A stretch of DNA of 64,000 nt, taken from NCBI GenBank assembly GCA_949282265.1, contig CASDOZ010000015.1, forward strand, positions 1-64,000, in the 5' to 3' direction. This stretch comes from an uncultured Bacteroidales bacterium. Lineage in GTDB: Bacteria; Bacteroidota; Bacteroidia; Bacteroidales; Paludibacteraceae. Each line of letters opens with the position of its first letter. Positions within the stretch are counted from its first letter, which is position 1. The notes under the pieces were generated by a model. The model worked only from the letters and a program-made list of their open reading frames with translations. It did not search any database and was not told the DNA's origin. Below are positions 462 through 31,613 of the stretch, piece by piece. The translations under genes and the position numbers were made by a program.

Positions 462-1297
462 AAAGATTTATTCTGTTTTTCTTCCTATCTATAGTTGGCA
501 TAACAGGTTTTGCCCAATATCAATTAAGCGGAATTGTTACTGATTCTATCGGTTCTCCTATTGATGCTGCCGTTGTTGTATTAATGGATTCGGAAAGTGG
601 AACTGCAATTCAACAAGGCATAACTTCTACCGAAGGCAAATATTGTATGAATACCTCTGGTGATATACAAATCTATATATGTTGTTTAGGGTATAAACAA
701 TTTGTGAGTGAACCTTTTAGATTAGACAAAGATACAATTATACCAGCCATCCAACTATCTTCCGATAATTTCCTTTTAGATGATATTGTGGTTGTCGGTG
801 AAAAACAATCTCCCCACATAAAAATTGAAAAAGGGAAAATGATTTTTATTCCCAAAAACAGTAGTATTATAGCAGGAAGTACGGCACTTGAAGTTTTGAA
901 AAAGACGCCTGGAGTTTTTGTTGATGGCGAAAATAATATAAGCATTGGTGGTAAAAATAGCGTATTGGTTGTAATTAACGGGAAACAAACTTATATGCAG
1001 AAAGATGAGCTAGTTTCACTTTTAAAAACAACTCCGTCGTCTTCAATATCATCTGTTGAAGTTATACATAACCCTTCAGCACAATATGATGCGGAAGGAT
1101 CAGGGGGGATTATTAATATTAATATGGATAAAAGAAAAACTGATGGCTTTTTTTTCTCTCTGAATAATGGAGTCTCATATTGGGATAATTTACGTGAGAA
1201 TACAGAACTATCTTTCAGTTATGCAAAAAATAAGTTCAGCTTGTCAGGTAACTATAATCACGCTTTTGGTCATTATAATTTATATTATGTAAAATAG
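458..1297 (+). pseudogene. TonB-dependent receptor, N-terminal third (split by inversion)
   Basis: Encodes 279 residues: a signal peptide at about 1-19 (MKRFILFFFLSIVGITGFAQ), a carboxypeptidase-regulatory-like domain at about 22-100, and a TonB plug domain at about 120-225 with LEVLKKTPGV and a GSGGIINI motif, as in outer-membrane beta-barrel family receptors. Such proteins run to about 800 residues, but this frame stops just after the first barrel strands (HYNLYYVK). The missing barrel is at 30035-31613 on the opposite strand and joins in frame across the 15-bp repeat at 1273-1287. As it stands the product lacks a barrel and cannot form a receptor. The natural protein would import a ligand with TonB energy; the ligand is unknown. 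The gene is AT-richer than the housekeeping genes to its right. Confidence 0.9.
1273..1287 (+). repeat. Left inversion site, 15-bp inverted repeat
   Basis: TTATAATTTATATTA lies inside the receptor N-terminal fragment, and its perfect reverse complement is at 31599-31613. Joining the left flank through this site to the reverse complement of the right flank restores the reading frame (HYNLYY then GMHRIQ). Confidence 0.85.
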
Positions 1298-1335
1298 AAA
1301 ATCTGGAATTGTAACATACCTCTACTCATTGGAAT

Positions 1336-1746
1336 TTATGAAATCACGGTGGCTACTATTTTACGCCTGCCGCCATGATTGCGGAATTCGCACAAATAAA
1401 TTCCTTGCCAGATGCCCAAGTTCAGTTGTCTGTTTCTAATCGGAATATTCAGCGATGTGCCGACCAATGTGGATTTTGCATGTGCCGGCATATCATCATC
1501 ACCTTCGTATGAATGTTCGTAATAAGGCTCGCGTTCTTTCACCAAATGGTCGAAAACCGCGTTCATATCAGTCTGCACACTTGGATCCGCATTCTCATTG
1601 ATGCTCAAAGCCGCGCTTGTATGTTTTATGAACAAATTCAAGAGGCCAGTTTCCGGCAAATCCGGTAAATGGCTGATAATCTCTTGTGTAACAAGATGAA
1701 ATCCGCGCCTATATGGCCGCAATTCAAATTCTGTTTGTCGTATCAT
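1336..1746 (-). CDS. yjbQ: YjbQ/UPF0047 family protein
   Basis: About 136 residues from the ATG at 1746. An in-frame start 36 bases further up lies inside the promoter, so the internal ATG was preferred. The protein matches the YjbQ/UPF0047 family: IKHTSAAL, NENADPSV, then H-rich segments and a GIWQGIYLCEFR ending. Family members have been reported to hydrolyse thiamine phosphate in some bacteria, but the physiological role is unsettled. Its 3' end faces the truncated receptor. Before the inferred inversion it would have been convergent with the SDR gene at 31695 and shared the terminator at 31625-31671. Confidence 0.85.
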   Translation of the reverse strand: MIRQTEFELRPYRRGFHLVTQEIISHLPDLPETGLLNLFIKHTSAALSINENADPSVQTDMNAVFDHLVKEREPYYEHSYEGDDDMPAHAKSTLVGTSLNIPIRNRQLNLGIWQGIYLCEFRNHGGRRKIVATVIS

Positions 1747-1750
1747 GCCG

Positions 1751-1782
1751 CAAAAATAGAAAATATATGCCCATTTGCACAA
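1751..1782 (-). promoter_or_regulatory. Bacteroidales promoter for yjbQ
   Basis: On the minus strand, TTG (1782-1780) and TATTTTTG (1758-1751) are 21 bases apart, fitting the TTG / TAnnTTTG consensus. The -7 element is five bases from the chosen ATG, so the leader would be almost absent. Confidence 0.5.
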
Positions 1783-1930
1783 ATAAAATCATTTATTGCC
1801 TGATTTTCAGCACTATTCTCCCCCACTCCGTATTTTTATATATCTTAACTAATTGTGTGTCAGAGCTATTGTTCAATTGTCTGAGCAGAACAAAAAACTT
1901 CATCCAACGCAAAATACTTAGAAATAGTGA

Positions 1931-1961
1931 TTGCCCAAGCAACGATTAATGTGTACTTTTG
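1931..1961 (+). promoter_or_regulatory. Bacteroidales promoter for feoAB
   Basis: TTG at 1931-1933 and TACTTTTG at 1954-1961, 20 bases apart, about 30 bases before the feoAB ATG. This placement supports the start at 1991 rather than the upstream in-frame ATG at 1931, which coincides with the -33 element. No Fur-like palindrome was recognised. Confidence 0.65.
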
Positions 1962-1990
1962 CAACACTAAAAAACAGTATTTTCGTACCC

Positions 1991-4699
1991 ATGAAATTGT
2001 CTGAACTGAAAACCGGCGAAAAAGCCTTGATAGTCAAACTGTCCGGATATGGCGGATTCCGTAAACGTATAGTGGAAATGGGCTTTGTGAAGGGCAAAAT
2101 CGTGGAAGCCGTAAATGTGGCTCCACTGCGTGATCCTATTGAATATTACGTTATGGGCTATCGCGTATCATTGCGCCGCAGCGAGGCGGATAATATCGAG
2201 GTAATTTCCATGCAGGAAGCTGAGACCATAGCCAAGCAACAACGCCTGCAAAACGATTATCATGGAACAATAACCGAAGATGACATCCGCCAAGTGGCGT
2301 TAGACCGACGTAAAGCCATTAAAATAGCCTTTGTAGGAAACCCGAATTGCGGTAAGACAAGTTTGTTCAATGCCGTGACCGGCGAACACGAACGTGTCGG
2401 CAATTACAGTGGCGTAACCGTCGATGCCGTACGAGGCAAATTCGATTACAAAGGTTATCATTTGCAAGTGGTTGATTTGCCGGGCACATATTCATTGTCG
2501 GCATATAGCCCGGAAGAAGCATACGTCCGGAAACATATCATAGAAGAACAACCGGATGTCGTTGTCAATGTGGTAGATGCATCTAATTTGGAGCGGAATC
2601 TCTTTTTGACTACGCAGTTGCTGGACATGAATGTGCGCATGGTGATTGCATTGAATATGTATGACGAATTGCAGGAACGTGGCGACAAGTTGGACTACCA
2701 CATGCTGGCACGTTTGCTGGGTGTTCCAATCCAGCCGACTGTAACACCTAAACATCAGGGAATTAACGAGCTGTTCGACATGGTATTGCGCATATATGAA
2801 GGCAGCGACATATTGGACAAGGAAGGGCGGCTGATTTCTACGGTTGAAAATGATGAGCTTCTGGACAAACTGCATCACGATATCAATTTGTCACACAAAC
2901 ACAACGATGATGAAAGTAATTCCGATAACGGACAGACAAATGAATTATATACCATTGTCCGTCATATCCACATCAATTATGGGCCAGAATTGGAAAGTGC
3001 CATTAAGGAAATAAAGGCGGCTATCGAGAAAAATGCACAGGCCCGCATAGAATATACGCCGCGCTACCAAGCCTTGAAGTTCCTGGAGAAAGACCGCGAA
3101 ATGGAGCCGCTGTTCAAGAGCTATGACAATTATAATGAACTATGCGACATACGCGAAAAATCGACCGCACGTATCGAAAAGGAATTGCATGACACGCCGG
3201 AAAATGCCATTATGGAGGCCAAATACGGCTTCATTTCCGGTGCGTTGAAGGAAACATTGCAGCAGGCCAAACCGAAAAAAGGAAAAACACGGACAGACAA
3301 AATAGACAATGTCGTTACCAGCCGCATTTGGGGCTATCCGATTTTTCTTCTGGCCTTGTTGCTTATGTTCGAAGCTACTTTTATGCTCGGGCAATATCCT
3401 ATGGACTGGATAGAAAGCCTTGTTGGTTGGATAGGAGTGCAACTCGGGAACATATTGCCGGAAGGAATGTTAAAAGACTTGCTGGTTGATGGCATTATCG
3501 GCGGTGTCGGCGGCGTACTTGTCTTTCTGCCTAACATTCTGATACTGTATTTCTGTATCGCCCTGCTTGAAGCTACCGGCTACATGGCTCGCGCAGCTTT
3601 TATCATGGATAAATTGATGCATAAAATCGGACTGCACGGGCGTTCGTTCATTCCGCTGATTATGGGATTCGGCTGTAACGTTCCCGCCATCATGGCTACG
3701 CGTACCATCGAAAACAGGAATAACCGCATGGTAACTATCCTGATTTCACCTCTGATTTCGTGCAGCGCACGTTTGCCCATTTACCTGTTATTGGCCGGTA
3801 CATTTTTCCCGAACCATGCAGGATTTGTATTGTTTGCCATTTACATGACCGGCATATTGCTTGCTGCCTTGATGGCTGTGATTTTCAAACGTTTCCTGTT
3901 TTTTAAGGAGGAGACCCCGTTTGTGATGGAGCTACCACCCTATCGTGCCCCTGGCATTCTGTCCTTGTTACGCTACACATGGGATAAAGGTGCGCAATAT
4001 CTGAAAAAAATAGGGACAACCATTTTGCTCGGTTCTATTATCATTTGGGCATTAAGTTATTTCCCACGCTATGAAAACCCAGACCCAACGAAACCGCTGA
4101 CAGCGGAAATGGTTGCTGAACAGCAGGCAAATTCATATTTGGGACGCATCGGAAAAGCTATTTCCCCCATAATGGAACCGTTGGGCTTCGAGTGGAAAAC
4201 GAGCGTGGCTGTTTTATCTGGAATTGCAGCCAAGGAAGTGGTGGTCAGTACATTGGGAGTCCTGTTCAACGAAGGGGATGATTCCGAAAGCGGACTTGGA
4301 CAGCGATTGGCTACTGAAATCCGGGCGGATGGGACACCGCTTTTTTCTCCTGCGGTTGCATTGAGCCTCATGCTGTTTGTGTTGATATATATCCCGTGTA
4401 TCGGGACAATAGCGACGATAAAGCATGAAACAGGTAGTTGGTGGTGGGCCGTTTTTGTCAGTATCTATACGATTTTGCTTGCATGGATAGTCTCATTTAT
4501 CGTGTATCAGAGCATTGTGCATAATATATGGCAAAGTGCCGTTGTCGGGCTGATTATATTTATTGCCTTGTGGGCGATACTGGCACGCTTGCGTAAAGCC
4601 TTACAGGCTAAAAGCCGTTGCCAAGGTTGTGCCGGTTGCCATGCCGGGACTACCAATCGAGATGCCCAACTCAAAGACAATTGTAATGACAAGAAATGA
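1991..4699 (+). CDS. feoB: FeoA-FeoB fusion ferrous iron transporter
   Basis: 902 residues. A FeoA-like SH3 domain occupies about 1-75 (MKLSELKTGEKALI, MGYRVSLRR). It is followed by the FeoB G domain with G1 GNPNCGKTS (about 115), G3 DLPGTYSL (about 161) and G4 NMYD (about 221), a helical linker, and from about residue 446 a membrane domain with the Gate motifs (GFGCNVPA, CSARLPIY). The protein imports Fe2+ across the inner membrane, coupled to GTP binding. The FeoA-FeoB fusion is common in Bacteroidales. The C-terminus carries a CxxCxxC stretch (CQGCAGC) that could bind metal or sense redox state, as in the cysteine-rich tails or FeoC-like partners of other systems. The gene is monocistronic, with its own promoter and terminator. 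Confidence 0.95.
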   Translation: MKLSELKTGEKALIVKLSGYGGFRKRIVEMGFVKGKIVEAVNVAPLRDPIEYYVMGYRVSLRRSEADNIEVISMQEAETIAKQQRLQNDYHGTITEDDIRQVALDRRKAIKIAFVGNPNCGKTSLFNAVTGEHERVGNYSGVTVDAVRGKFDYKGYHLQVVDLPGTYSLSAYSPEEAYVRKHIIEEQPDVVVNVVDASNLERNLFLTTQLLDMNVRMVIALNMYDELQERGDKLDYHMLARLLGVPIQPTVTPKHQGINELFDMVLRIYEGSDILDKEGRLISTVENDELLDKLHHDINLSHKHNDDESNSDNGQTNELYTIVRHIHINYGPELESAIKEIKAAIEKNAQARIEYTPRYQALKFLEKDREMEPLFKSYDNYNELCDIREKSTARIEKELHDTPENAIMEAKYGFISGALKETLQQAKPKKGKTRTDKIDNVVTSRIWGYPIFLLALLLMFEATFMLGQYPMDWIESLVGWIGVQLGNILPEGMLKDLLVDGIIGGVGGVLVFLPNILILYFCIALLEATGYMARAAFIMDKLMHKIGLHGRSFIPLIMGFGCNVPAIMATRTIENRNNRMVTILISPLISCSARLPIYLLLAGTFFPNHAGFVLFAIYMTGILLAALMAVIFKRFLFFKEETPFVMELPPYRAPGILSLLRYTWDKGAQYLKKIGTTILLGSIIIWALSYFPRYENPDPTKPLTAEMVAEQQANSYLGRIGKAISPIMEPLGFEWKTSVAVLSGIAAKEVVVSTLGVLFNEGDDSESGLGQRLATEIRADGTPLFSPAVALSLMLFVLIYIPCIGTIATIKHETGSWWWAVFVSIYTILLAWIVSFIVYQSIVHNIWQSAVVGLIIFIALWAILARLRKALQAKSRCQGCAGCHAGTTNRDAQLKDNCNDKK

Positions 4700-4718
4700 A
4701 TCCAAAGATAATAATCAA

Positions 4719-4753
4719 GACAAGTCCAGGGCTTTTGCTATCCGGACTTTTTT
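4719..4753 (+). terminator. Terminator of feoAB
   Basis: Stem AAGTCC(A)GG / CCGGACTT with an 11-base loop, followed by a T run, about 20 bases after the feoAB stop. Confidence 0.75.
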
Positions 4754-4770
4754 ATCCCTATGGATATTAT

Positions 4771-4813
4771 AAAAATAAAAGAGGTGTGCCGGAATAATCC
4801 GACGCACCTCTTC
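4771..4813 (-). terminator. Terminator of the wbpD-wbpB-DUF4293 unit
   Basis: Near-perfect 13-bp stem (GAGGTGTGCCGGA with TCCGACGCACCTC) around an ATAA loop. The T-rich tail is on the minus strand, so it serves the gene ending at 4837. It shares the CCGGA-ATAA-TCCG core with hairpins at 19260 and 24236. Confidence 0.8.
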
Positions 4814-4836
4814 AAAACTGATTGTTTCAAAAATAT

Positions 4837-5319
4837 TTATCTTAATCTATCCAACGAGCGTACCAAAGCCTCATCTCTCAAAATTCCTCTGATAGCCAAT
4901 GCACTGAGAATGATACTGATCAAAGGAAATGAACTTGGAATACATAAAAACGATTCATCCGCGTGCAATTTCTGCTTTCCTATCCAGATATAAAAAAACA
5001 GCAAAGCATAGTAGCCTACCATCAGCAGGATATTAAATACATTGAACCGTGCCTGCAATACGCGTTTCCGATACAAAAAAATAGATATAAGCGCTATCAC
5101 CGGAATGACTGCTGTCAATATTGACAGCCCCCATACAGGCATGACAGATGGATTATTCTCCACTGTCTGCATGTTGTCTTGCAAAAAGACTCCCATAAAA
5201 GTCAGGTCATAGACTTCCAATGTAGTTTTGTTGTAAAATCCTCCTATGGGCGTAAAAAACATTACAGCCGATAAAATGACTACTAAAAACAGATAAAGTG
5301 TTTGAACTCGTTGAATCAT
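4837..5319 (-). CDS. DUF4293 membrane protein
   Basis: 160 residues with four predicted membrane helices (about 6-22, 64-82, 92-112, 128-145). The opening MIQRVQTLYLFLVVILS and an extracytoplasmic loop after the first helix are characteristic of the Bacteroidota DUF4293 family. Function is unknown. It lies 21 bases after wbpB and before a strong terminator, so it is probably co-transcribed with the sugar genes. This gene is often found apart from such genes elsewhere, so a functional link is not claimed. Confidence 0.85.
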   Translation of the reverse strand: MIQRVQTLYLFLVVILSAVMFFTPIGGFYNKTTLEVYDLTFMGVFLQDNMQTVENNPSVMPVWGLSILTAVIPVIALISIFLYRKRVLQARFNVFNILLMVGYYALLFFYIWIGKQKLHADESFLCIPSSFPLISIILSALAIRGILRDEALVRSLDRLR

Positions 5320-5340
5320 ATTCGATATTTTCTGGAAAGA

Positions 5341-6369
5341 TTATTGTTTGGCTTTTTTCCACTGTTTATCCCGTACCTGGTAAATACGTTCAATAATATC
5401 CACCACTTTCAAGCCTTCTAACAGATTTGTCGTAATAGAGCCTTTGTCTGTCAACTTCTCAACCACGTTTTGTATGACATAATGGTGGTTCTGGGCCGAA
5501 CCTTTATACAAGCCGTAATCATTAGGCGGATTGGACGGCGCAAGCGTAGGCATCTCATAGTCTTTGACATGGCAATACGCCACTTCGTTCATGTATTGTC
5601 CAGCTACTTTGATAGTACCGCGTTCGCCTATCACGGTCAGTGAACTTTCCAAATTGGTGTCCCATACGGACGTGGAATAATTCAGGCAACCCATGCCGCC
5701 GTTTATGAAGTCAAATGTTACGACACCGCTGTCTTCAAAATCAGTTAGGTTCTGATGGTTGAAATCGGCAAAATTGCCGCAAATGTTGGTAATGTCCCCG
5801 AAGAGCCAATACATGATGTCAATAAAATGTGAGAACTGCGTGAACAGCGTTCCGCCATCCAATTTCGCATCTCCGTGCCAGTTTCCTTTCTTGTAATAGC
5901 GGTCATCGCGGTTCCAGTAACAATCAAGTTTAACCATATATATGTCCCCGAGAATCCGGTTGGTCATTACTTCTTTCAGCCATACGGAAGGTGGTGAATA
6001 GCGGTTTTGCATTACGCAGAACACATGGCGCGAAACTTCCAATGATTTGAAAAGGATGCGTTCAGCATCAGCTTTGGTCAGAGCAGCGGGTTTTTCCAGC
6101 ACGACATGTTTCTTGGCTTCCAAGGCTTTGATGGCATAGTCAGCATGAAATCCGTTTGGCGTACAGATATTTACAACATCAATATCCAAACCTGCATTTA
6201 ACAACTCATCGATGCTGGAAAAATAAGGAACTTCTATATTTTCACAGCCGGTCTGTTCCTTGGGAAGGACATCGCACACGGCGACTAATTCTGAATCAGG
6301 ATTCCTCCTTATCATTTCAGCGTGGCGTTTCCCGATATGTCCCTGCCCTATTACAGCAAATTTAATCAT
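5341..6369 (-). CDS. wbpB: Gfo/Idh/MocA oxidoreductase, WbpB/WlbA-like
   Basis: 342 residues. The N-terminal Rossmann fold has GQGHIG at 8-13 and the family EKP motif (LEKPAAL, about 92). The C-terminal domain carries HFIDIMYWLFG. It resembles WbpB/WlbA enzymes, which oxidise UDP-GlcNAc-derived uronate (UDP-GlcNAcA) at C3 with NAD+. The gene downstream of which it sits encodes the matching WbpD/WlbB acetyltransferase, five bases away, which supports a role in making UDP-2,3-diacetamido-2,3-dideoxyuronic acid for LPS O-antigen or capsule. The aminotransferase (WbpE) and UDP-GlcNAc dehydrogenase (WbpA) needed for the pathway are not in the window. Confidence 0.8.
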   Translation of the reverse strand: MIKFAVIGQGHIGKRHAEMIRRNPDSELVAVCDVLPKEQTGCENIEVPYFSSIDELLNAGLDIDVVNICTPNGFHADYAIKALEAKKHVVLEKPAALTKADAERILFKSLEVSRHVFCVMQNRYSPPSVWLKEVMTNRILGDIYMVKLDCYWNRDDRYYKKGNWHGDAKLDGGTLFTQFSHFIDIMYWLFGDITNICGNFADFNHQNLTDFEDSGVVTFDFINGGMGCLNYSTSVWDTNLESSLTVIGERGTIKVAGQYMNEVAYCHVKDYEMPTLAPSNPPNDYGLYKGSAQNHHYVIQNVVEKLTDKGSITTNLLEGLKVVDIIERIYQVRDKQWKKAKQ

Positions 6370-6374
6370 ATCAT

Positions 6375-6944
6375 TTATATTTTGGTTACATTTCCGTTAG
6401 TTAATTTATATCTTGTTTTCGTGGCTGGACATACAGCTATCCCATCTGCATCAAAATACAGCTTTTCGCCATATTCACTTACCCAGCCGATTTGATGCGC
6501 CGGATTACCAGCCATTAAAGCATAAGGTTTTACATCCTTAGTTACTACGGAACCAGCTCCGATCAATGCGTAACAGCCGATTTCATGGCCACAGACAATG
6601 GTCGAATTGGCTCCGATACTGGCACCCTTACGTATTATAGTCTGTTTGTATTCATGCTTGCGTGAAACATGGCTCCGAGGATTCAACACATTTGTAAATA
6701 CCATGGAAGGCCCTAAAAACACATCATCCTCGCAAATGACGCCTGTATATACAGACACATTATTCTGGATTTTTACGTTACGACCAAGCACTACATCCGG
6801 CGAAATAACAACATTTTGTCCGATATTGCAGTCTTCGCCGATTGTACAACCGCCCATTATATGCGAAAAATGCCATATTTTCGTTCCTGCGCCAATCTGG
6901 CAACCATCATCCACGTATGAAGATTCATGTTTGTAATAGTCCAT
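6375..6944 (-). CDS. wbpD: Sugar N-acetyltransferase, WbpD/WlbB-like
   Basis: 189 residues forming a left-handed beta-helix of hexapeptide repeats (IGAGTKIWHFSHI, IGEDCNIGQNVVI, IGANSTIVCG, IGAGSVVTKDV, MAGNPAHQIG). This repeat order and the WHFSH histidine are typical of WbpD/WlbB, which acetylates the 3-amino group of UDP-2-acetamido-3-amino-2,3-dideoxyglucuronate using acetyl-CoA in the cytoplasm. The C-terminal extension (CPATKTRYKL) is as in those enzymes. It is the first gene of a three-gene minus-strand unit with wbpB and DUF4293. Confidence 0.85.
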   Translation of the reverse strand: MDYYKHESSYVDDGCQIGAGTKIWHFSHIMGGCTIGEDCNIGQNVVISPDVVLGRNVKIQNNVSVYTGVICEDDVFLGPSMVFTNVLNPRSHVSRKHEYKQTIIRKGASIGANSTIVCGHEIGCYALIGAGSVVTKDVKPYALMAGNPAHQIGWVSEYGEKLYFDADGIAVCPATKTRYKLTNGNVTKI

Positions 6945-6967
6945 AACGTAATTTTTAAAATATCTGG

Positions 6968-6975
6968 CAAAGATA
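6968..6975 (-). promoter_or_regulatory. -7 element for wbpD
   Basis: TATCTTTG on the minus strand, 24 bases before the wbpD ATG. A -33 TTG lies closer than usual, so only the -7 element is called. Confidence 0.5.
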
Positions 6976-7052
6976 CGAATTTTAGTTGGTTCAACATATT
7001 AAAACATATTATAACCGGCTTTTTTATACTAAAAACATTGTCTTTATGGCAT

Positions 7053-8384
7053 TTACATACCGGTATAATTGTGTGGCGTTATGGCGTGAAGCTCTTTTTT
7101 TACTGCCTCAGATACGTCCAATTTGTCAATGAAATCAGATATGGATTGTTCTGTAATAGCTTGGTTTGTACGTGTCAAGGCCTTCAAGGCTTCATAAGGC
7201 GAAGGATAAGATTCCCTGCGCAATATGGTTTGGATTCCTTCGGCAACAACAGCCCAGCAATTGTCCAAATCCTTGTATAATGCTTCTTCGTTGAGTAGAA
7301 GTTTTCCGATACCTTTGTGCAGGCTCTGTGTTGCAATCATCGTGTGGGCGAAAGGTACACCGACGTTCCGCAATACGGTACTGTCGGTCAAATCGCGTTG
7401 CAGGCGCGAATTGGGCAGCTTGGCTGCTAAATGTTCCAACATGGCATTGGCCACGCCCAAGTTGCCTTCCGCATTCTCAAAATCAATTGGATTGACTTTG
7501 TGCGGCATGGCCGACGAACCCACTTCACCAGCCTTGATTTTTTGTTTGAAGTATTCCATGGAAACATACAGCCAAATGTCCCTGCTGAAATCGAGCAACA
7601 CGGTATTGATGCGTTTCATGGCATCGAATTGCGCCGCCAAATAATCATAATTGGAAATCTGCGTGGTCCACGGTTCGCGTTGCAAGCCGAGCTTGTCGGC
7701 TACGAAAGCGTTGCCGAATGAAATCCAGTCAATTTCAGGATAAGCCACATGGTGCGCGTTGAAATTGCCGGTTGCCCCGCCGAATTTGGCTGTACAAGGT
7801 ACAGCCAGCAATGTGGACAATTGTTCCTTCAATCTGTTTACGAACACCATGATTTCCTTGCCCAAACGTGTCGGTGATGCGGGTTGCCCGTGCGTTTTTG
7901 CCAACATCGGAATATCTTTCCAAGCATCCGCCTTTTGTTGCAGTTCCGCTATGAGCGACAACATTTCGGGCAAATATACATCCTGTATGGCTTCCTTGAT
8001 TGACAACGGGACAGCCGTGTTGTTAATGTCTTGCGATGTCAGTCCGAAATGGATAAATTCCTTGAAAGCCTGTAAATCCAATGTATCAAATTTTTCTTTC
8101 AGGAAATATTCGACAGCTTTCACATCATGGTTGGTTATCTGCTCTATATCCTTGATACGTTGGGCATCGGCTTCCGTAAAGTCTTGATAGATGGTACGTA
8201 ATGCAGGATATATTTCCGGTTTTACGACGGCAAGTTGTGGCAACGGCAATTCGCACAAAGCGATAAAATACTCAATTTCCACACGCACGCGGTAACGGAT
8301 AAGCGCATATTCCGAAAAATAAGCCGCATATTTCTGGGTTTTAGACTGGTAACGCCCGTCTATCGGCGAAATGGCTGTCAACAT
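7053..8384 (-). CDS. purB: Adenylosuccinate lyase
   Basis: 443 residues of the fumarase/aspartase superfamily. The signature SSAMPHKVNPIDFENAEGN and the active-site region TSQDINNTA and HGQPASPT are present, and the length fits the E. coli-type PurB. It cleaves SAICAR to AICAR plus fumarate and adenylosuccinate to AMP plus fumarate in purine synthesis. It is the last gene of the minus-strand run, 12 bases after rseP, so it may be read from the pyrG promoter or an internal one. Confidence 0.95.
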   Translation of the reverse strand: MLTAISPIDGRYQSKTQKYAAYFSEYALIRYRVRVEIEYFIALCELPLPQLAVVKPEIYPALRTIYQDFTEADAQRIKDIEQITNHDVKAVEYFLKEKFDTLDLQAFKEFIHFGLTSQDINNTAVPLSIKEAIQDVYLPEMLSLIAELQQKADAWKDIPMLAKTHGQPASPTRLGKEIMVFVNRLKEQLSTLLAVPCTAKFGGATGNFNAHHVAYPEIDWISFGNAFVADKLGLQREPWTTQISNYDYLAAQFDAMKRINTVLLDFSRDIWLYVSMEYFKQKIKAGEVGSSAMPHKVNPIDFENAEGNLGVANAMLEHLAAKLPNSRLQRDLTDSTVLRNVGVPFAHTMIATQSLHKGIGKLLLNEEALYKDLDNCWAVVAEGIQTILRRESYPSPYEALKALTRTNQAITEQSISDFIDKLDVSEAVKKELHAITPHNYTGM

Positions 8385-8396
8385 ATTTTACAAAAG

Positions 8397-9890: not shown

Positions 9891-9935
9891 AATTTTGAAT
9901 GTCAAGTTTTTAAATAATCATTATGAAGCTATTTT

Positions 9936-11932: not shown

Positions 11933-11937
11933 AATTA

Positions 11938-19236: not shown

Positions 19237-19259
19237 GCCTACCTCCTTTTTATAATGGG

Positions 19260-21047: not shown

Positions 21048-21091
21048 CGATACACACCCCCCGCGGCTTTTTTTCATCACAATTGCATGTT

Positions 21092-21211: not shown

Positions 21212-21351
21212 AGTCGTTTTGCTTGTTTCCTTTACGATTGCAAAAGTACGTTTTTCAATCGAAATCCTTCATTGTGGGCCTGTTTTTTTTATTGTTGCCG
21301 CACGTGGCGGCGAACGGGGCTCGTTAGAAATTTTCCGCCCACTTCGCCGTT

Positions 21352-21906: not shown

Positions 21907-22085
21907 TTGCACAAAAGCCTGCGGGAATTGCGCGACACGCGGTGTGAAACACAGGCGGCACAAAGATAATATTTCCCATGCATAAGATAACGGACAGGCC
22001 AAAACAGAACGGAAAAATGGCGTATAAGGGAACATTTCCGGAAAATTTGCCGTATTTTTGTACGTGAAACACAGACTTGGACTCT

Positions 22086-22397: not shown

Positions 22398-22398
22398 A

Positions 22399-23451: not shown

Positions 23452-23471
23452 ACCGCACAAGACTGAATATT

Positions 23472-24041: not shown

Positions 24042-24235
24042 TTCGGCAAACGATGCTTTCGGAAATAAAAACAAACTGAAAGTAAAAAAGTTGTGCCTAT
24101 TACCTAACTCCGATTATTTGATTCAAATTATGTAAATCGAATAATTGGATTATTTTGGGACGACTTCCCTTACAATAAAAAGAAAAATTACTACAAGATT
24201 TTTCTACCATCAATTTTATACAGATTTCCACGTAT
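24042..24235. other. AT-rich intergenic spacer
   Basis: Between the acetyltransferase stop and the terminator hairpin. No gene, promoter pair or RNA was recognised. Confidence 0.5.
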
Positions 24236-24276
24236 AAAAAGGAATGTGCCGGAATAAAATCCGGCACATTCTTTTA
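24236..24276. terminator. Bidirectional terminator between maa and the GH84 gene
   Basis: Perfect 12-bp stem GAATGTGCCGGA / TCCGGCACATTC with an ATAAAA-like loop and T runs on both sides, placed between two convergent genes. Confidence 0.9.
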
Positions 24277-24304
24277 AACCCTTTTTGAAAGCCAAACACG
24301 GATA

Positions 24305-27300
24305 TCAATGGATGACTTTATAGCTTTTGTTGTCAACCAGCACGATATATACGCCTTTATTTGGAGCTTGGATGGAAAAACTGTCACCGATTCTCCCGTT
24401 AAACAGTTCAATGCCGTTGATGCCGTATATCCTGACAATCTTTCCACCATGTCCGTTTATATGTATCATATCGCCAGAGAAGAATATTTCCGGTTCTTCA
24501 GTCGTTTTACCGATTCCAGTTTCCACAGAACTATCATCCTCAACATACGGAGTTCCCGATGCACTTATTTCATATATGTTAGGTATGTTCTCGTTGTTCC
24601 ATTCTATCCGGAGCGTAGAAATACCCTTAATCGATGCCACATCAATAATCTTGGTCGCATCATCCAGCACACCCATATCGTATGAGTTCCCGTTTGCAAA
24701 GAGGGTCAAGGTTGGAAGGCCGTACGCCTCGTCGTAAGTCGAGTTGTGGTATATTGTAATCTCCTTGATGTTGATATTGTCGATAAATTGGTAGTCGATA
24801 TATCCAGCGGCATCTGCCGTATAATATGTATTTAATGAACGGTCATTTAAAGCAGTCGTGTAAATATAGTTGTTGTCTCTGGCTGCCGCTATGTCCCGGC
24901 CGTTGTAAACCTTGAAGTTTGTCAGTTTCAGCCAACCTCCGCTGGCCTTTACAATCATAAAGCGGACGTAACGTCCTGATTTGTCTCCGGGAATGGCATA
25001 GACATATTGGTTGCCTTTTATTTCGGATGAATTGAACGAATTTATTACTTCCCATGAACTGCCGTTGGACGAAACTTCAAGAACGCAATCGCCGGCAGGC
25101 TGGTCGTTGCTTTCGAAATCGAGTTGCACTTTATATATAATACAATCTTTGCCAAGGTCAATAGAAACCCAGTCGCCGTCCTGCTGGTTGCGGCTGCTCC
25201 AGAAATAGGAAGAAGAATTGTAATTTATAATATTGTTGATACTATAATATTGGTACTGAGGCATATTTGTCGATGCATTTGTCGGCGAGTACAACCCAAT
25301 GATTTTAACCGTTCCTTTCAGCATGGCAACGTTAACCGGCTTGGTTATCTCATCAGATACATTTTTAATCCGGAAATATGCCATCTCGATGTAAGTCGAG
25401 CCATCGGGGACGACTTCTGTCCAGTTCTTGCCGTTCAACGAATACTCCACCCTGAATTCATTAGGAAAGCCGGCACCCAGCGACGAAATGGCCACCTCCT
25501 TTATTTCATTCATAAAAATACCTATGTACTCATTTGGCGCAAGCGATACATCTGTCAGACCTGTAAGAGAAAATTCCGTTTCGTTTGTTGATAACGACAC
25601 ACCCGATGGGATTTCTGACAAATTGTGGATAATTTGCGGGGAGGTTTCTTCATACGGAAATTCTGGTGCATAAGGAGCATATCTGGCCATTATGAAATCC
25701 GTAAACGGCTCCATATATGTATCTGCCGGATTTGCTTCCACATAATGCACAGAAGTCTCTGTACCGCTTCCTTCCAGAACGTATGATTTGAATGCAGGAT
25801 CGCTATGCAACTTGTTGTAATGTTGAATGGCACCGGTATATTCTGTCCAGTTGGCTATTGTTCCTGGTGATTGCAACCACTTCAAAGCACTGCCGATAAT
25901 ATAGCTCATCGAAGCAAGTTTCCCGTTCCATGGACTTATATCTTCATACATAAGCGAATATGCTGTTTTCCTGCTATTTTCCATGGTAGCCACCTCATTA
26001 AAAGCATTATTTAGCTCTTCCATTTTGTCTATCAATGAAGATGTTGTGGGTTCCGGTAAATTGAAATCAGAATAATTATTTCTAAATGCAGAATATAAAG
26101 ATGTTAGTTCACTCGGTTCAATAGTCGATTCCGAGTTTATGCAAAATGTCCTGAACGCATTGCCTAATTCATTGTCATTCCTGAAAAGAAATTTAAACGA
26201 GGCCTCCCAGTTTTCAGAAGCATTGAATTCTGCCGTATTCCAACAATAATCAGCCAGCCCGAACATGAATATCTTTGATGCTTGCCCCTGTTGCATCGGA
26301 TTGGCAACCACACCCCCCAAAGCTGGAATAGGAGCATTCTGCACCGAGAACCTGTAAGTCATATCGTGCATGTATATCCTGTCATCATGGTCATCATTAC
26401 ACGGGTTGTTCCACCACATTAGCGGATTCCGGCCTATTATGTCCTTAAATCTCTGGCAGTCGTTGTTGTTTACATTCGACCATACACCGCTGCCGGTAAA
26501 CAGAATCACGATATCGGGATCGATTGTACTCAACTGCGTAAGTGACGAAGAGCCAACATCCAATGAATACTCCTGCGGAACGAAAAAGAGCGGAGAAACC
26601 CTGTCCTCAGGAGCACTGCCGCTGCCGTTATATTTTGCTTTCAGTTTGGCATACAACTGATCCGGCAAATAAGCTGTCATTTGCGCGCTCGGAGCATAAG
26701 CAATATCATCAATAAAAACGCCGAATCCTCTTACGCCGAGGTCATACATTTTTCCGAACTTCTCCATTATTTCCTCTATTCCCGGATCCATTGCACTCGG
26801 GCTGCTGAAATCTATCGAATTCTGCATGGCGGGATGTATAGCCCATATAAAGTGGACATTGCATTCCATTGCCTTTTCGCTGATACGCCTCATGTCATCT
26901 TGGGTAAGATAACCTTTTTTTCTCTCTTCATCAGTTATGCTTACAGGATAATCCTCTTGCCAAAATCCAGCATGGTACGGATCAGCTTTAGGGCCGTAAA
27001 TGAAAGTGTTGAGTTTGTATTCTTTGAAAAAATCCAACAATGATATGATACTTTCAACGCTATACGGAGTACCGTAATAGCCTTCTACAATACCGCGGTA
27101 CTGGGTATATGCATAATCTTCTATGGTTACTTTTTGCAATTGCGTGCCATTGGCAAGGATTTGCTTCAGCGTAGCCAGTCCGTAAAACGCCGAACCGTCT
27201 TCGTTCCCTATCATTACTATAGCGCCAGCGTCTTTATTGCTGTTTATCTGCAATACATAAGGGTCAAACATGTTGTCCGAGCCAGAAAACACACTCCGCG

Positions 27301-27607
27301 ACAGGTTCGATGCGGTTGCAAAATTGTCAGCCTCCCCATTCGATCCGTTAATGCCGATATACAGATAACTATTGGCCGATGAATAATTTGAATATACTGG
27401 ATTCAATCCGGCGTTTGTCAGAATCTCTTCTGCAAAATTCTTGATTTTGTTGGAGATGCCATCATCCATAACAACATTTACGCTGTTTGTCAGCGAGATG
27501 ATCCCATTGTCCTCAACCATATTCTGTGGAATAGGATATATGGTGTAAGCTTTCATGCTATACACACACAAGACTGGCATCAGGAATAAAAGTAGTGTTT
27601 TTTTCAT
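24305..27607 (-). CDS. Secreted GH84 beta-N-acetylglucosaminidase with F5/8C and sorting tail
   Basis: 1100 residues. Signal peptide (about 1-20), an N-terminal GH20b/GH84-associated domain, then the GH84 catalytic domain with RGIVEGYYGTPYS (about 168) and the paired catalytic aspartates in GVFIDDIAY (about 297). A helical region follows, then an F5/8 type C (discoidin-like) domain at about 780-905, another beta domain, and a C-terminal domain of about 75 residues ending GVYIVLVDNKSYKVIH. The last part resembles type IX secretion sorting tails. It probably removes terminal GlcNAc from host glycans or hyaluronan-like chains at the cell surface. It is transcribed alone from 27758-27788. Confidence 0.9.
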   Translation of the reverse strand: MKKTLLLFLMPVLCVYSMKAYTIYPIPQNMVEDNGIISLTNSVNVVMDDGISNKIKNFAEEILTNAGLNPVYSNYSSANSYLYIGINGSNGEADNFATASNLSRSVFSGSDNMFDPYVLQINSNKDAGAIVMIGNEDGSAFYGLATLKQILANGTQLQKVTIEDYAYTQYRGIVEGYYGTPYSVESIISLLDFFKEYKLNTFIYGPKADPYHAGFWQEDYPVSITDEERKKGYLTQDDMRRISEKAMECNVHFIWAIHPAMQNSIDFSSPSAMDPGIEEIMEKFGKMYDLGVRGFGVFIDDIAYAPSAQMTAYLPDQLYAKLKAKYNGSGSAPEDRVSPLFFVPQEYSLDVGSSSLTQLSTIDPDIVILFTGSGVWSNVNNNDCQRFKDIIGRNPLMWWNNPCNDDHDDRIYMHDMTYRFSVQNAPIPALGGVVANPMQQGQASKIFMFGLADYCWNTAEFNASENWEASFKFLFRNDNELGNAFRTFCINSESTIEPSELTSLYSAFRNNYSDFNLPEPTTSSLIDKMEELNNAFNEVATMENSRKTAYSLMYEDISPWNGKLASMSYIIGSALKWLQSPGTIANWTEYTGAIQHYNKLHSDPAFKSYVLEGSGTETSVHYVEANPADTYMEPFTDFIMARYAPYAPEFPYEETSPQIIHNLSEIPSGVSLSTNETEFSLTGLTDVSLAPNEYIGIFMNEIKEVAISSLGAGFPNEFRVEYSLNGKNWTEVVPDGSTYIEMAYFRIKNVSDEITKPVNVAMLKGTVKIIGLYSPTNASTNMPQYQYYSINNIINYNSSSYFWSSRNQQDGDWVSIDLGKDCIIYKVQLDFESNDQPAGDCVLEVSSNGSSWEVINSFNSSEIKGNQYVYAIPGDKSGRYVRFMIVKASGGWLKLTNFKVYNGRDIAAARDNNYIYTTALNDRSLNTYYTADAAGYIDYQFIDNINIKEITIYHNSTYDEAYGLPTLTLFANGNSYDMGVLDDATKIIDVASIKGISTLRIEWNNENIPNIYEISASGTPYVEDDSSVETGIGKTTEEPEIFFSGDMIHINGHGGKIVRIYGINGIELFNGRIGDSFSIQAPNKGVYIVLVDNKSYKVIH

Positions 27608-27913
27608 GTTTTTGTGTTTTTAGTATTTTATTGAAAATTTGGTAATTATGGAAATCAAATACGCGATTGACTGGGCAAGAAAAAACCTTTCGACATGCCA
27701 CAACAAAAAAGATAATATATGCAAAATACATATATTATAACCTCAATTTTTCGGTAGCAAATATATTATAAAAAAAGGAATTGCACAAATTCGATAATAA
27801 ATGAAGCTGATACTCCGGAAAATATTACAATTTGGGTTGATTGAAGATTTTGGAAAAAGCAAAAAGGAAATTACATCAAAAAAGAAACTGATTCTTTTAT
27901 TTTTTTGTCAAGA
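27608..27913. other. AT-rich intergenic region with the GH84 promoter
   Basis: Between the glycosyltransferase stop and the GH84 start, both on the minus strand. It contains the promoter at 27758-27788 and a long 5' leader of about 140 bases. No structured RNA was recognised. Confidence 0.6.
27758..27788 (-). promoter_or_regulatory. Promoter of the GH84 gene
   Basis: On the minus strand, TTG (27788-27786) and TATATTTG (27765-27758) are 20 bases apart. The start would be about 145 bases before the ATG. Confidence 0.6.
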
Positions 27914-29029
27914 CTACCCTATCAGACTGAAAATATTTTTGCATGTATCCGAAAAGATATTGCTTTGTTGTGCAAGCTGCATTTGCATGCGATATGCACT
28001 GTCTGTGCAAAGCTTGTCAGCTACGGCAACTTGTTGTTGCACATCAACCGTGCTGTACGACATACCGTGATAATGAAAAAAACGTGCATTATCAGTTTCA
28101 CAACCAGGTATCGGTGCAGTATGTACGAGCGGAATATTTTTGGCAGCCGCTTCGGTACTGGAAAGCCCGCCTGGTTTGGTAAACAATACATCGCAAGCAT
28201 CCATCAACATGGAAACCTTGTTGGTAAAACCTATGGTATGTAAATGTCGGCTTTCACTGAAACATTTGTCCAACCGTAGTTTCAATTCATGATTGCTGCC
28301 GCATACAGCAAAAATTTCCACATCTTGCCCATGCTTCGCAATTATTTCCTGTATCAAAAGTTCCGTTTTGCCAAAACCCATGCTTCCCGACATGATAAGA
28401 TACCAACGGCACGACATACTATCCGGCAATGCCATACTGTGTATTAATTCATTGCGGGCTACTGACTTATCATTCCGCGTAAAAAAGACTTTACACACCG
28501 GTATCCCATAGGGGAACAACAATTCCCGCCGCGCACCAACAGCAACACATTCCTCTACAAGGTGCAGATGCGGAATCACAATGCCATCTACTTCCAAATC
28601 TTTCATCAACGGCAAAGCATCATAATCTGTCTGCACAAAAACACATTTTTGCGTAAGCAATCCAGTGCGTCTCAGGGATGTCAAGGCTTCTGCCGGAAAA
28701 ACATGAGTGCAGATAATAGCATCGAAATTACCACTCCGGATATAGTCGTACAGTTTTTTACAATAAATTTTATTGGCTACATACACCGGCGATTTCATTG
28801 TCCGTGAACGTGGTACGCTTTCACCAGCTTTATAAATTATTTTTATCAAATTGCTTTTGGTCGTGAAAATGTACAGGTCGGACATGGTCTGCGAAAAGGC
28901 CGGACTGACAAACGACAACGTATCAGCTATTTCACATTCTATCCCCTTTTCTGCTCCATATTCAGCCAATGCCATCGCTGCTGAATTGTGTCCGCCGCCC
29001 ATATTGCAAGAAAGTATAAGTGTTTTCAT
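27914..29029 (-). CDS. Glycosyltransferase, MGDG synthase/MurG-like fold
   Basis: 371 residues from ATG 29029. The N-terminal SCNMGGGHNSAAMAL is the MGDG-synthase-type glycine-rich motif, and the C-terminal nucleotide-sugar part has TKPGGLSSTEAAA. These match GT28 family diacylglycerol glycosyltransferases (UgtP/MGD1-like), which add hexose to membrane diacylglycerol. The lipid acceptor is inferred from the family. The gene starts divergently from the Nudix gene with about 195 bases between. Confidence 0.85.
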   Translation of the reverse strand: MKTLILSCNMGGGHNSAAMALAEYGAEKGIECEIADTLSFVSPAFSQTMSDLYIFTTKSNLIKIIYKAGESVPRSRTMKSPVYVANKIYCKKLYDYIRSGNFDAIICTHVFPAEALTSLRRTGLLTQKCVFVQTDYDALPLMKDLEVDGIVIPHLHLVEECVAVGARRELLFPYGIPVCKVFFTRNDKSVARNELIHSMALPDSMSCRWYLIMSGSMGFGKTELLIQEIIAKHGQDVEIFAVCGSNHELKLRLDKCFSESRHLHTIGFTNKVSMLMDACDVLFTKPGGLSSTEAAAKNIPLVHTAPIPGCETDNARFFHYHGMSYSTVDVQQQVAVADKLCTDSAYRMQMQLAQQSNIFSDTCKNIFSLIG

Positions 29030-29189
29030 AATATAGGTTTGATTGTGCGGCAAAGCTAATAAATAATTTTATAGAAAAATCAGAAGCCAAGTTTTTTCAT
29101 GGAAAAATAACACCTGACGACATATATAACTAAAATGTGGTAAAAACGGAATTTCCCAGCGTATGTTTCGGGGAAAAACTGAAATAAAT

Positions 29190-29197
29190 TATCTTTG
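29190..29197 (+). promoter_or_regulatory. -7 element for the Nudix gene
   Basis: TATCTTTG about 28 bases before ATG 29225. A weak TTTC -33 lies about 21 bases upstream. Confidence 0.5.
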
Positions 29198-29224
29198 CCG
29201 CCACATAAGAATGATTCAAAAACA

Positions 29225-29620
29225 ATGAAACGAATAGAGGTCGTCGCTGCAATCATCGGACATGCCGGAAAAATTTTTGTTACCCAACGCGGTTATGGTG
29301 AATTTAAAGACTATTGGGAATTTCCCGGCGGGAAAATGGAATCCGGCGAAAGCCGCGAAGAAGCCTTGAAACGTGAGCTTCGTGAAGAATTGGACACGGA
29401 AATCAGCATAGATGCTTTCCTTACTACGGTCGAATATGATTATCCGTCTTTCCACATAACCCTGCATTTCTATTTCTGCTCCATCCTTTCAGGTTATCCG
29501 GTGCTGAAAGAACACGAAAACGCCGCGTGGCTTAGTCCGCAGGAATTGGATTCTGTGCGTTGGCTGCCCGCCGATACGGAAGTGATAAAAATGTTGCAGG
29601 AAAAGGGAAAAACTACCTGA
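29225..29620 (+). CDS. mutT: Nudix hydrolase, MutT-like
   Basis: 131 residues from ATG 29225. The Nudix box spans GGKMESGESREEALKREL and continues REELD, with all catalytic glutamates present. The EFPGG and WLSPQELDSVRWLPAD context resembles MutT 8-oxo-dGTP diphosphatases, which clean oxidised nucleotides from the pool. Its last eight bases overlap, tail to tail, the 3' end of the macro-domain-like gene on the other strand. Confidence 0.88.
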   Translation: MKRIEVVAAIIGHAGKIFVTQRGYGEFKDYWEFPGGKMESGESREEALKRELREELDTEISIDAFLTTVEYDYPSFHITLHFYFCSILSGYPVLKEHENAAWLSPQELDSVRWLPADTEVIKMLQEKGKTT

Positions 29621-30014
29621 TAATCTTGTCGAAACTCTCCGGCAAGACAATGTTATCCAGCATAATAGCATCCTTGAACAGCGGCGCAATCTCTTCATCC
29701 CTGAATCCGGCAATACCGCAACCGATTCGGGTAACTAAGAAAATGTATTCCTTGTGCTCCCGCGCATAATCAATAAACTGGTCCACATACGGTTTAATGG
29801 TTTCTACCCCGCCCTGCATGGTTGGAATGGCATACGTTCTGCCTTGCAAGCCAATCCCTTGCCCCCATATCGCACCAAAATGCTTATACGCGGCACGGGC
29901 TGCCCCACCACCATGAAAACCGTCCAGGTTACTGCCAAAAACAAATATCTCATTGGGTTGCAAACAGGTGATATTTTCAGGAGTGTAGCGGGGCTTTGTG
30001 TAATTTTGTTTCAT
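29613..30014 (-). CDS. Macro-domain-like protein (A1S_2505-type)
   Basis: 133 residues. NEIFVFGSNLDGFHGGGAA and the later RIGCGIAGF resemble the ligand-binding loops of macro domains that bind ADP-ribose, and the protein fits the family annotated as A1S_2505 phage-type non-structural proteins. The catalytic role is unknown. It lies 20 bases downstream of the receptor C-terminal part, so it is probably the last gene of the receptor transcript. The first 43 bases are duplicated at 361-403. Confidence 0.7.
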   Translation of the reverse strand: MKQNYTKPRYTPENITCLQPNEIFVFGSNLDGFHGGGAARAAYKHFGAIWGQGIGLQGRTYAIPTMQGGVETIKPYVDQFIDYAREHKEYIFLVTRIGCGIAGFRDEEIAPLFKDAIMLDNIVLPESFDKIIR

Positions 30015-30016
30015 AT
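29974..30016 (-). repeat. Copy B of macro-domain gene 5' end (43 bp)
   Basis: Start of the intact macro-domain-like gene. It matches 361-403 on the plus strand with four mismatches. Confidence 0.85.
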
Positions 30017-30034
30017 TATGGATGGAAAATTGAT

Positions 30035-31613
30035 TTAAAGTCTGTCCAATTCTTCAAATTTACTATTATGTTTATTGCTTTTATTATAACCAAATCTATA
30101 TGCTATGTTCAGTTTAACCTGCCTTGATTCACCTTTACCCCAATTCCACAATTGGAATCCATAAAATGAACTGGAGTTATCCCATCTATTAGTCCAAAAA
30201 ACATCACTCATAGCAAGATTAACAATCCATTTTTTATCAGCAAAACTTTTACTAAAGCCGATATCCACAAATCCTGAAGGTTCAATATATTCATTCGAGG
30301 CTCCAAGACGTTTAGTAGTGTAAGAGCCATTTAGCTCCATTTGGATTTGCCAAGGCAAACGAATAGTATTTTGTATTGAGAATATACCCGCAAATCCATC
30401 AAGATTAAACCTTCGATTTTGGTCAAATGCTATATCATTTTTTACATAATAACCTATTAAGTTTAAATTCATTTCCCACCATTTCGCCAAATTTATTCCT
30501 TGATAGAGTGTGATGGATGCCCGTTGTTGTTTACCAATATTTCTTGGCGTCATTATAACCTTATTTACAGAAAGAGTATCGGTAATCTGTGCCTTATAAT
30601 CTTTCATATATGAGTAAGATGCTGTAATTGCAGTACGCTTGTATGAATACGTTAAATCAGCCTGATAAGTTTTCTGCGGAATTAAAAAAGGGTTTCCCTT
30701 CCAATAAGACAACTCATCAAGTAAATATTCAAATGGATTTAAATCTTGGTATGCAGGGCGATCAATTCTACTGGCATAGCTTAATGTTATTGCGTGATTA
30801 TCATTTATCTTGTAATTTAGATTAAAAGTAGGGAATAAGTTAAAATAATTTCTTTTATTAGTTTCATCACCATCCCCATCTATTGTTTTTAAAATTCCAT
30901 CAGAAAATGTATATTCACCACGTAATCCTGCTTCCATGCTCACATTGTTGCCTAATGAATGAGTATACAAGATATAAGCAGCCAAAATTCGTTCTTTATA
31001 TCTAAAATTATTTGATTGTGATTTGTCTATTATTTCCTGATCATTTGCTACATTATAAAATTGATATCTGTTATCAGCATTAACTGACGAAAACTTCAGT
31101 CCTGATTTTAATTCGCCATTCCATAATGGGTGTATTTGATCATATGATAATGCATATATATTGATATCTCTCTTGTTAACAGACTTATAAAGATTATCTT
31201 GTAATATGGTCCCATCAGGTGATGTATACTTGTTGGGTTGCCAATTACCGGAACCACCATCAAACCAAGCATAGTTAAAATCAATGGTATAACTTACCCC
31301 TTCTTTAGGAGTTGATATATAATAAAGATTTCCGCCATATCTATTCCCTTTTTGTTTATAATAATTATTACTTGCATAGAGGATTTGTTCTAATTGATTT
31401 GTACCAGCATCCCTGATTTCTGTTGTTGTATTAGTTTGACCAGGACCAAATAATGTATTCACATCAATCCGTCCACCAACCAAGTGCTTACTATCAAATG
31501 CATATTCTATGTTAATATTTCCAGATATTGTTTTACGCTTATCAGTATCTTGTGTAGGACTATAATAATCTTTACCTCCTTGTATACGATGCATACCGTA
31601 ATATAAATTATAA
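30035..31613 (-). pseudogene. TonB-dependent receptor, C-terminal barrel part (split by inversion)
   Basis: A frame of over 520 residues encoding only outer-membrane beta-barrel strands with alternating aromatic residues (NINIEYAFDSKHLVGG, RIDRPAYQDLNPFEYLLD, KLNIAYRFGY). It has no signal peptide or plug. The first in-frame ATG is at 31594, but the homologous reading continues up to the 15-bp repeat at 31613. There it joins, in frame, the N-terminal part at 458-1287. Without its N-terminus it has no promoter or export signal and should be silent in this orientation. The family typically imports a ligand with TonB energy. Confidence 0.9.
31599..31613 (-). repeat. Right inversion site, 15-bp inverted repeat
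   Basis: Perfect reverse complement of 1273-1287. The plus-strand flank to the right (from 31614) is the intergenic terminator region before the SDR gene. Confidence 0.85.

What the first reader, a model, noticed from the sequence alone, without database searches (positions are those of the whole stretch)
1273..31613. A 30-kb inversion splits a TonB-dependent receptor at a 15-bp inverted repeat
Seen directly: the N-terminal part of an outer-membrane receptor ends at 1287 on the plus strand, the rest starts at 31613 on the minus strand, and both ends share the perfect sequence TTATAATTTATATTA. Joining them restores one frame (HYNLYY followed by GMHRIQ). At the other end the inversion explains why yjbQ now points into the receptor instead of into the terminator next to the SDR gene. 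The 15-bp match is shorter than the k-mers usually used by assemblers, so an assembly join there is less likely than a true event. Whether this is a one-off microhomology event or reversible phase switching of a surface receptor cannot be told from one orientation.
Basis: partly seen in the sequence, partly recalled or inferred. Interest (0 to 1): 0.85.

Follow-up and report, generated by a model that had tools for sequence, protein, structure and literature searches.

The report
Inversion at the chromosome's dif site
A 30-kb stretch of this bacterium's chromosome was flipped, probably because the enzymes that separate linked chromosomes at the dif site recombined that site with a look-alike inside a surface receptor gene, cutting the receptor in two.

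Summary
TTATAATTTATATTA occurs at 1273-1287 (+) and 31599-31613 (-) and nowhere else in the 2.47-Mb assembly. The receptor halves are contiguous in 12 of 13 related loci. The one same-genus genome held, G001, carries the block in the opposite orientation to its left flank, so the window's order is derived.

The repeat is the core of dif, the chromosome dimer resolution site. The 18-mer ACATAATATAAATTATAA (at most 1 mismatch) is in 26 of 61 genomes, once in 22 of them; reversed-pattern control 1 of 61. Its flanks give a dif-shaped 28-bp consensus, TTGTCTTATAA-TTTATA-TTATGTTAAAT. Re-pairing the half-sites of the two junctions gives a near-consensus dif between yjbQ and the SDR gene (44.3 bits) and a poor receptor look-alike sharing the central 15 bp (0.4 bits). 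XerC-like, XerD-like and FtsK-gamma proteins are encoded.

Best reading: XerCD recombined dif with an inverted look-alike. Pooled GC skew changes sign at the site in 4 of 7 relatives, but not in this window. In G001 all three cores lie within 77 bp of contig tips, hinting that dif is a rearrangement hotspot. Reversibility is unproven.

The parts
458..1297 (+). N-terminal part of the split TonB-dependent receptor (plug half), ends YNLYYVK-stop
1268..1295 (+). Junction 1, hybrid dif: 1268-1278 receptor-derived left arm GGTCATTATAA, 1279-1284 spacer TTTATA, 1285-1295 XerD-type arm TTATGTAAAAT from the yjbQ side; 24.6 bits
1288..31598 (.). Inverted segment (30,311 bp between the two 15-mers), derived orientation relative to G001
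1336..1746 (-). yjbQ-type gene (UPF0047), formerly beside dif
30035..31612 (-). C-terminal part of the receptor (beta-barrel half)
31591..31618 (-). Junction 2: on the minus strand XerC-type arm TTTTCTTATAA from the SDR side (31608-31618), spacer TTTATA (31602-31607), receptor-derived arm TTACGGTATGC (31591-31601); 20.1 bits
31628..31667 (.). 11-bp perfect inverted repeat with 18-nt loop and T-run beside the SDR gene (possible terminator)
   Evidence: read by eye; not reported by the scan
31695..32510 (-). Short-chain dehydrogenase (SDR) gene that flanked the original dif

Best explanation
The 15-bp inverted repeat is the centre of dif, the 28-bp site at which XerC and XerD resolve chromosome dimers. 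Before the inversion dif lay between yjbQ and the SDR gene. The TonB receptor gene about 30 kb away held a sequence with the same 6-bp spacer and the same inner arm bases in inverted orientation. XerCD brought the two together and exchanged strands in the spacer. This flipped the 30 kb, cut the receptor after YNLYY, and left a hybrid dif with a native XerD arm and a receptor-derived XerC arm. Shown here: the inversion relative to the sister species, the dif-like identity of the site, and the reciprocal half-site pattern. Inferred: that XerCD catalysed it, and that it was an off-target event rather than a regulated switch.
For: The 18-mer core, at most 1 mismatch, is in 26 of 61 genomes (1 copy in 22, 2 in 3, 3 in G001; reversed control 1 of 61). 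Flanks of the 27 sites in the 24 other genomes give an 11-6-11 layout; the consensus of 21 of the 27 has the XerD arm TTATGTTAAAT, the same as in the E. coli dif printed in PMC3025954. Re-paired half-sites: yjbQ/SDR site 44.3 bits (training range 26.6-45.9), receptor site 0.4, junctions 24.6 and 20.1, next best window position 5.0. The two sites are inverted to each other, as an inversion requires. The receptor core is the nearest second match to the 18-mer in G000 (2 mismatches; the 10 other places have 3, which is chance level by the control). Xer-type recombinases and FtsK_gamma are present. G001 has the same core beside its SDR gene. Pooled GC skew changes from + to - across the site in 4 of 7 relatives.
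Against: The receptor look-alike is poor outside the central 15 bp: 7 other window positions (one site counted on both strands) score as high over 28 bp, and XerCD normally binds both arms. Skew does not change sign across the re-paired site in the window (+0.031 / +0.010) nor across its G001 counterpart (-0.013 / -0.041); in 3 of 7 relatives it does not change nearby either, and in G023 the change lies some 60 kb off. Both Xer candidates fall below the NCBIfam XerD and XerC equivalog cut-offs, the first narrowly. In G001 the arm beside the SDR gene departs from consensus and its C26 site scores only 17.9. The assembly is 89% complete, so another dif could be missing. No reads, no assay.
Confidence: 0.74

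Rival explanations
1. A break in the terminus region near dif was repaired through the 15-bp match by microhomology or template switching, without Xer catalysis.
For: The receptor site matches dif only over the central 15 bp (0.4 bits over 28 bp). PMC5638614, seen only as a search listing with the start of its abstract, reports DNA loss and breaks around dif in E. coli lacking RecBCD.
Against: The shared bases are centred on the 6-bp spacer, where Xer exchanges strands; a random breakpoint would fall in the 28-bp dif with a chance of roughly 2 in 100,000 (my arithmetic: two breakpoints, 2.47 Mb).
Confidence: 0.12
2. A selected, reversible phase switch of the receptor that uses these repeats.
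For: Both junctions keep the 15-bp core, so reversal is possible in principle; Bacteroidales often vary surface genes by inversion (listings and abstract starts). G001 cores at contig tips hint at coexisting joins.
Against: Only one arrangement in the assembly; no tyrosine recombinase gene on the contig; block of housekeeping genes; the 12 receptor relatives do not have the 15-mer at this place or elsewhere in their loci.
Confidence: 0.07
3. Assembly artefact: the two joins do not exist in the cell.
For: The contig starts 1272 bases left of junction 1, and window 2-400 is 96% identical to G001 against a median of 81.5% for 400-column chunks of the remaining matches (highest of 91 chunks 90.7%).
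Against: A 15-bp match is shorter than usual assembly k-mers; the two joins are reciprocal and together account for both a whole receptor frame and a near-consensus dif.
Confidence: 0.04

Closest known systems
XerCD/dif chromosome dimer resolution
   Same: Site layout, XerD arm, Xer-type recombinases, FtsK-gamma
   Different: dif normally recombines with dif on a sister chromosome; here the partner is a look-alike in a coding gene of the same chromosome
Xer-dependent integration at dif-like sites (microvirus proviruses of Bacteroidetes, PMC3091885, passages read)
   Same: Host Xer enzymes are proposed to join dif-like sequences that share a short core (13-bp att reported there)
   Different: Integration of a mobile genome, not inversion of resident DNA
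XerC-driven inversion of the mba locus in Ureaplasma parvum (PMC3599477, passages read)
   Same: A Xer-family recombinase inverts DNA at short inverted repeats of a surface-protein locus
   Different: Dedicated repeats separate from dif and a small phase-variable locus; here one of the two sites is dif and the block is 30 kb
dif-module shuffling in Acinetobacter plasmids (PMC13141974, search listing and abstract start only)
   Same: Rearrangement built around dif-type sites
   Different: Plasmid modules with many such sites
Invertons and shufflons of gut Bacteroidales (search listings)
   Same: An inversion that affects an outer-membrane protein gene
   Different: No recombinase gene seen on the contig, no alternative receptor module, and the repeat is dif

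Membership tests
dif site (original yjbQ/SDR site) | 28 bp, 11-6-11, conserved TTATG-type XerD arm | tested here: met
   Re-paired site TTTTCTTATAA-TTTATA-TTATGTAAAAT, 44.3 bits
dif site (original yjbQ/SDR site) | One copy per chromosome, conserved among relatives | tested here: met
   26 of 61 genomes at 1 mismatch or less, 22 with one copy, 3 with two, G001 with three; 35 without at this stringency
dif site (original yjbQ/SDR site) | Lies near the replication terminus / GC-skew switch | tested here: inconclusive
   Pooled skew changes sign in 4 of 7 relatives (at the site in G024 and G027; approximate in G023 and G025); G002 only at 100-300 kb; none in G054, G030; none in the window or G001
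dif site (original yjbQ/SDR site) | XerC, XerD and FtsK with gamma domain encoded | tested here: met
   Best NCBIfam matches XerD (328.2 bits, cut-off 329.6) and XerC (293.9, cut-off 335.15), both under the equivalog cut-offs; FtsK_gamma 94.7 bits, over cut-off
dif site (original yjbQ/SDR site) | Recombined by XerCD | not testable with these tools
   No assay
dif site (receptor look-alike) | Both arms match the dif consensus | tested here: not met
   0.4 bits over 28 bp although the central 15 bp are identical
Phase-variable inverton / shufflon | Dedicated recombinase gene nearby | tested here: not met
   4 tyrosine recombinase matches in G000, none on C15; none among the main block ORFs scanned; serine recombinases not searched genome-wide
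Phase-variable inverton / shufflon | Both orientations in one population | not testable with these tools
   Only one arrangement in the assembly; no reads

The most novel reading that the evidence does not exclude
In this genus dif is a standing inversion hotspot: XerCD repeatedly joins dif to look-alike sites in or beside surface genes (the TonB receptor here; in G001 a site between a histidine-kinase operon and a SusC/SusD locus), so that the machinery of chromosome separation produces reversible variation of surface genes near the terminus.
Probability: 0.12. Interest if true: 0.85.

Novelty: new variant of a known kind. Interest (0 to 1): 0.56.

Why it matters
XerCD is usually thought of as acting on dif and its close copies. 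A natural inversion with one end in dif and the other in a coding gene would show that a look-alike near the terminus is a liability: it can flip tens of kilobases, break a gene and leave a hybrid dif. It gives a testable route for terminus-centred rearrangement and a working dif consensus for Bacteroidales. I saw no report of such a dif-by-gene inversion in the rows listed by the searches; those lists were partial (for example 15 of 58 papers, 12 of 34, 15 of 31, these last unrelated), and the library lacks most subscription papers.

Tried and rejected
Considered and set aside: a recombinase-driven shufflon (no recombinase seen on the contig, no second receptor module seen); an insertion sequence at the junctions (none by reading; not searched for); a mobile element at the G001 site (the genes scanned beside it look chromosomal: histidine kinase, LytTR regulator, cytidylyltransferase, YicC and Lon on C26, MFS, SusC-type and SusD on C20; one small protein had no match).

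Led nowhere: an E. coli-like dif pattern with 3 mismatches gave as many matches as its control. GC skew of the window showed no switch. Searching G000 for the G001 DNA beside C20 and C26 gave only short matches of 31-120 bp, so that locus could not be compared. The phrase search on Xer inversion gave unrelated papers in the 15 of 31 listed. Terminator scans found none. The upstream DNA of homologues of the small C26 gene (4 genomes besides G001) was printed and not analysed further; in the same script the printed translation of the left flank was out of frame, so the reading of that gene start given under Noticed in passing is by eye. Not possible: other strains of this species, raw reads.

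Dropped rows: 6 of 27 sites were left out of the scoring matrix because their right arm departs from TTATGTNAAAT (G052, G017a, G028b, G034, G004, G030b). The G000 and G001 sites were not used for training. My notebook says 9 'other' window positions score at least as high as the receptor site; the 9 include the two junctions, so 7 is right.
Full report
OBSERVATION. The 15-mer TTATAATTTATATTA is at 1273-1287 (+) and 31599-31613 (-). The window holds no third copy even with one mismatch (0.05 expected), and the 2.47-Mb assembly (28 contigs, 89% complete) only these two exact ones. The window is the start of contig C15 (66,173 bases), so the contig begins 1272 bases left of the first repeat. The left ORF, 458-1297, carries a TonB plug; the right part, read leftwards from 31612 to 30035, is an OMP_b-brl_3 barrel. 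A search with the barrel gave 13 loci. In 12 of them, all titled as Bacteroidales-type organisms (Phocaeicola, Parabacteroides, Mediterranea and others), the plug part lies directly upstream in the same frame and the two matches share 15 nt. The thirteenth is a distant homologue at 27% identity.

DIRECTION. The one same-genus genome among the 60 relatives, G001, matches window 1336-30016 as one collinear series on contig C23, in the opposite orientation relative to window 2-400, while window 31697-43171 matches contig C28. The window's order is therefore derived. G001 has no receptor there: the left flank runs straight into the A1S_2505-like gene. Among the other 60 genomes the barrel finds only distant homologues (at most 35% identity), against 61-85% in the 12 loci of other genera. 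This suggests horizontal gain (inference).

WHAT THE REPEAT IS. G001 contig C28 begins with the longer 18-mer ACATAATATAAATTATAA, beside its SDR gene. With at most one mismatch this 18-mer is in 26 of 61 genomes: once in 22, twice in 3, three times in G001. The pattern read backwards hits 1 of 61. In the 27 sites of the 24 genomes other than G000 and G001 conservation runs beyond the 18 bases, in an 11-6-11 layout. The consensus of 21 of the 27 (6 dropped for aberrant right arms) is TTGTCTTATAA-TTTATA-TTATGTTAAAT. Its right arm equals that of the confirmed E. coli dif printed in Kono et al. 2011 (PMC3025954, passages read). That paper also tabulates dif predictions for 19 of 19 Bacteroidetes; I did not see those sequences.

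Position gives mixed support. Pooled GC skew goes from + to - across the site in 4 of 7 relatives: sharply in G024 (all five 20-kb blocks + before, all five - after) and in G027 (only 7.4 kb held on one side), less exactly in G025 and G023. G002 changes only between stretches 100-300 kb away on either side. G054 and G030 do not change within the stretches held. The window and G001 show no sign change. Sequence, copy number and conservation make dif the best identification; position alone would not.

HOW THE JUNCTIONS READ. Junction 1 (1268-1295, +) is GGTCATTATAA-TTTATA-TTATGTAAAAT: the left arm is receptor, the right arm a XerD-type arm from the yjbQ side. Junction 2 (31591-31618, -) is TTTTCTTATAA-TTTATA-TTACGGTATGC: a XerC-type arm from the SDR side, then receptor. 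Pairing the two dif-type arms gives 44.3 bits (training sites 26.6-45.9). Pairing the two receptor arms gives 0.4. The junctions themselves give 24.6 and 20.1, and the best other window position 5.0; 7 other window positions reach the receptor's 0.4. This is the pattern expected from strand exchange in the 6-bp spacer between dif and an inverted look-alike that is good only in its centre. In the whole genome the receptor core is the nearest second match to the 18-mer (2 mismatches); 10 more places have 3, which is no more than the reversed control gives. In the 12 relatives the aligned receptor bases differ from TTTATA in the spacer, so the look-alike belongs to this allele. Some of its present spacer bases could also have come from dif during the exchange; this cannot be told.

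MACHINERY. PF00589 finds 4 tyrosine recombinases in G000, none on this contig. One is closest to XerD (328.2 bits, cut-off 329.6), one to XerC (293.9, cut-off 335.15), two are longer and more distant. FtsK_gamma is present in G000, G001 and G024. Among the main ORFs of the inverted block scanned are feoB and members of the families of adenylosuccinate lyase, M50 peptidase, DXP reductoisomerase, YidC, CTP synthase, pyruvate phosphate dikinase, NAGidase and a NUDIX protein; two short overlapping ORFs had no match and no recombinase turned up. This is not a switch cassette.

WIDER THAN ONE EVENT? In G001 the three exact copies of the core all lie at contig tips: C20 and C28 begin with it and C26 has it at 60-77. 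C20 and C26 share an exact 77-bp end that starts at the core. Several other tip pairs also share exactly 77 bases, which suggests an assembly k of 77. A 20-bp shared sequence (C20 and C28) should not break such an assembly, so different joins at dif may coexist in that sample. A random place lies within 77 bp of one of 60 tips with a chance of about 0.002 (my arithmetic, 2.6 Mb). Against this: no contig shows the alternative joins, the missing pieces may be short contigs that are not held, and the G001 arms are themselves poor (C26 site 17.9 bits; the arm beside SDR departs from the consensus). Suggestive only.

MECHANISM AND CONSEQUENCES. Most likely XerCD, acting near the terminus, recombined dif with the look-alike 30 kb away; because the sites are inverted the product is an inversion. 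PMC5357621 (passages read) states that the outcome of site-specific recombination depends on site orientation. The plug half now ends in VK-stop and the barrel half has lost its N-terminus. The only recognisable dif in this 89% complete assembly is a hybrid inside the broken receptor. Reversal is possible in principle, as both junctions keep the core. Rivals: repair of a break near dif through the 15-bp match (0.12), a selected switch (0.07), artefact (0.04).

LITERATURE. Passages read: PMC3025954, PMC3091885, PMC5357621, PMC3599477, PMC2483231, PMC7062461. All others were seen only as search listings with the start of an abstract.

VERDICT. A real inversion with one end in the site that is best identified as dif and the other in a receptor gene: ordinary enzymes, unusual partner. 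New variant of a known kind; interest 0.56.

Noticed in passing
L092 1-77, L094 1-77, L090 1-20 (G001 contigs C20, C26, C28): All three exact copies of the dif core in G001 lie within 77 bp of contig tips, and C20 and C26 share a 77-bp end: possible coexisting joins at dif in that genome.
   Followed up: partly
window 2-400: This stretch is 96% identical to G001 although 400-column chunks of the other matches have a median of 81.5% (highest of 91: 90.7%), as if exchanged recently.
   Followed up: partly
window 363-400 and 29976-30014: The 5' coding end of the A1S_2505-like gene is present on both sides of the former receptor place, which looks like a scar of the receptor's arrival (read by eye).
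   Followed up: no
L195/L213 (G017), L202/L214 (G028), L209/L215 (G030): Three relatives hold a second dif-core match, in each case one of the pair with aberrant arms; these could be further look-alikes or element attachment sites.
   Followed up: no
L133 74-427 (G001 C26): A small protein gene ahead of a histidine kinase takes its ATG from within the dif core; relatives in 4 other genomes.
   Followed up: partly
L089 9564-9640 and L165 924-1000 (G001 C23 and C19 ends): Both contigs end in the same 77 bases, early in a gene that begins about 130 bp after yjbQ, so extra DNA lies between yjbQ and dif in G001.
   Followed up: no
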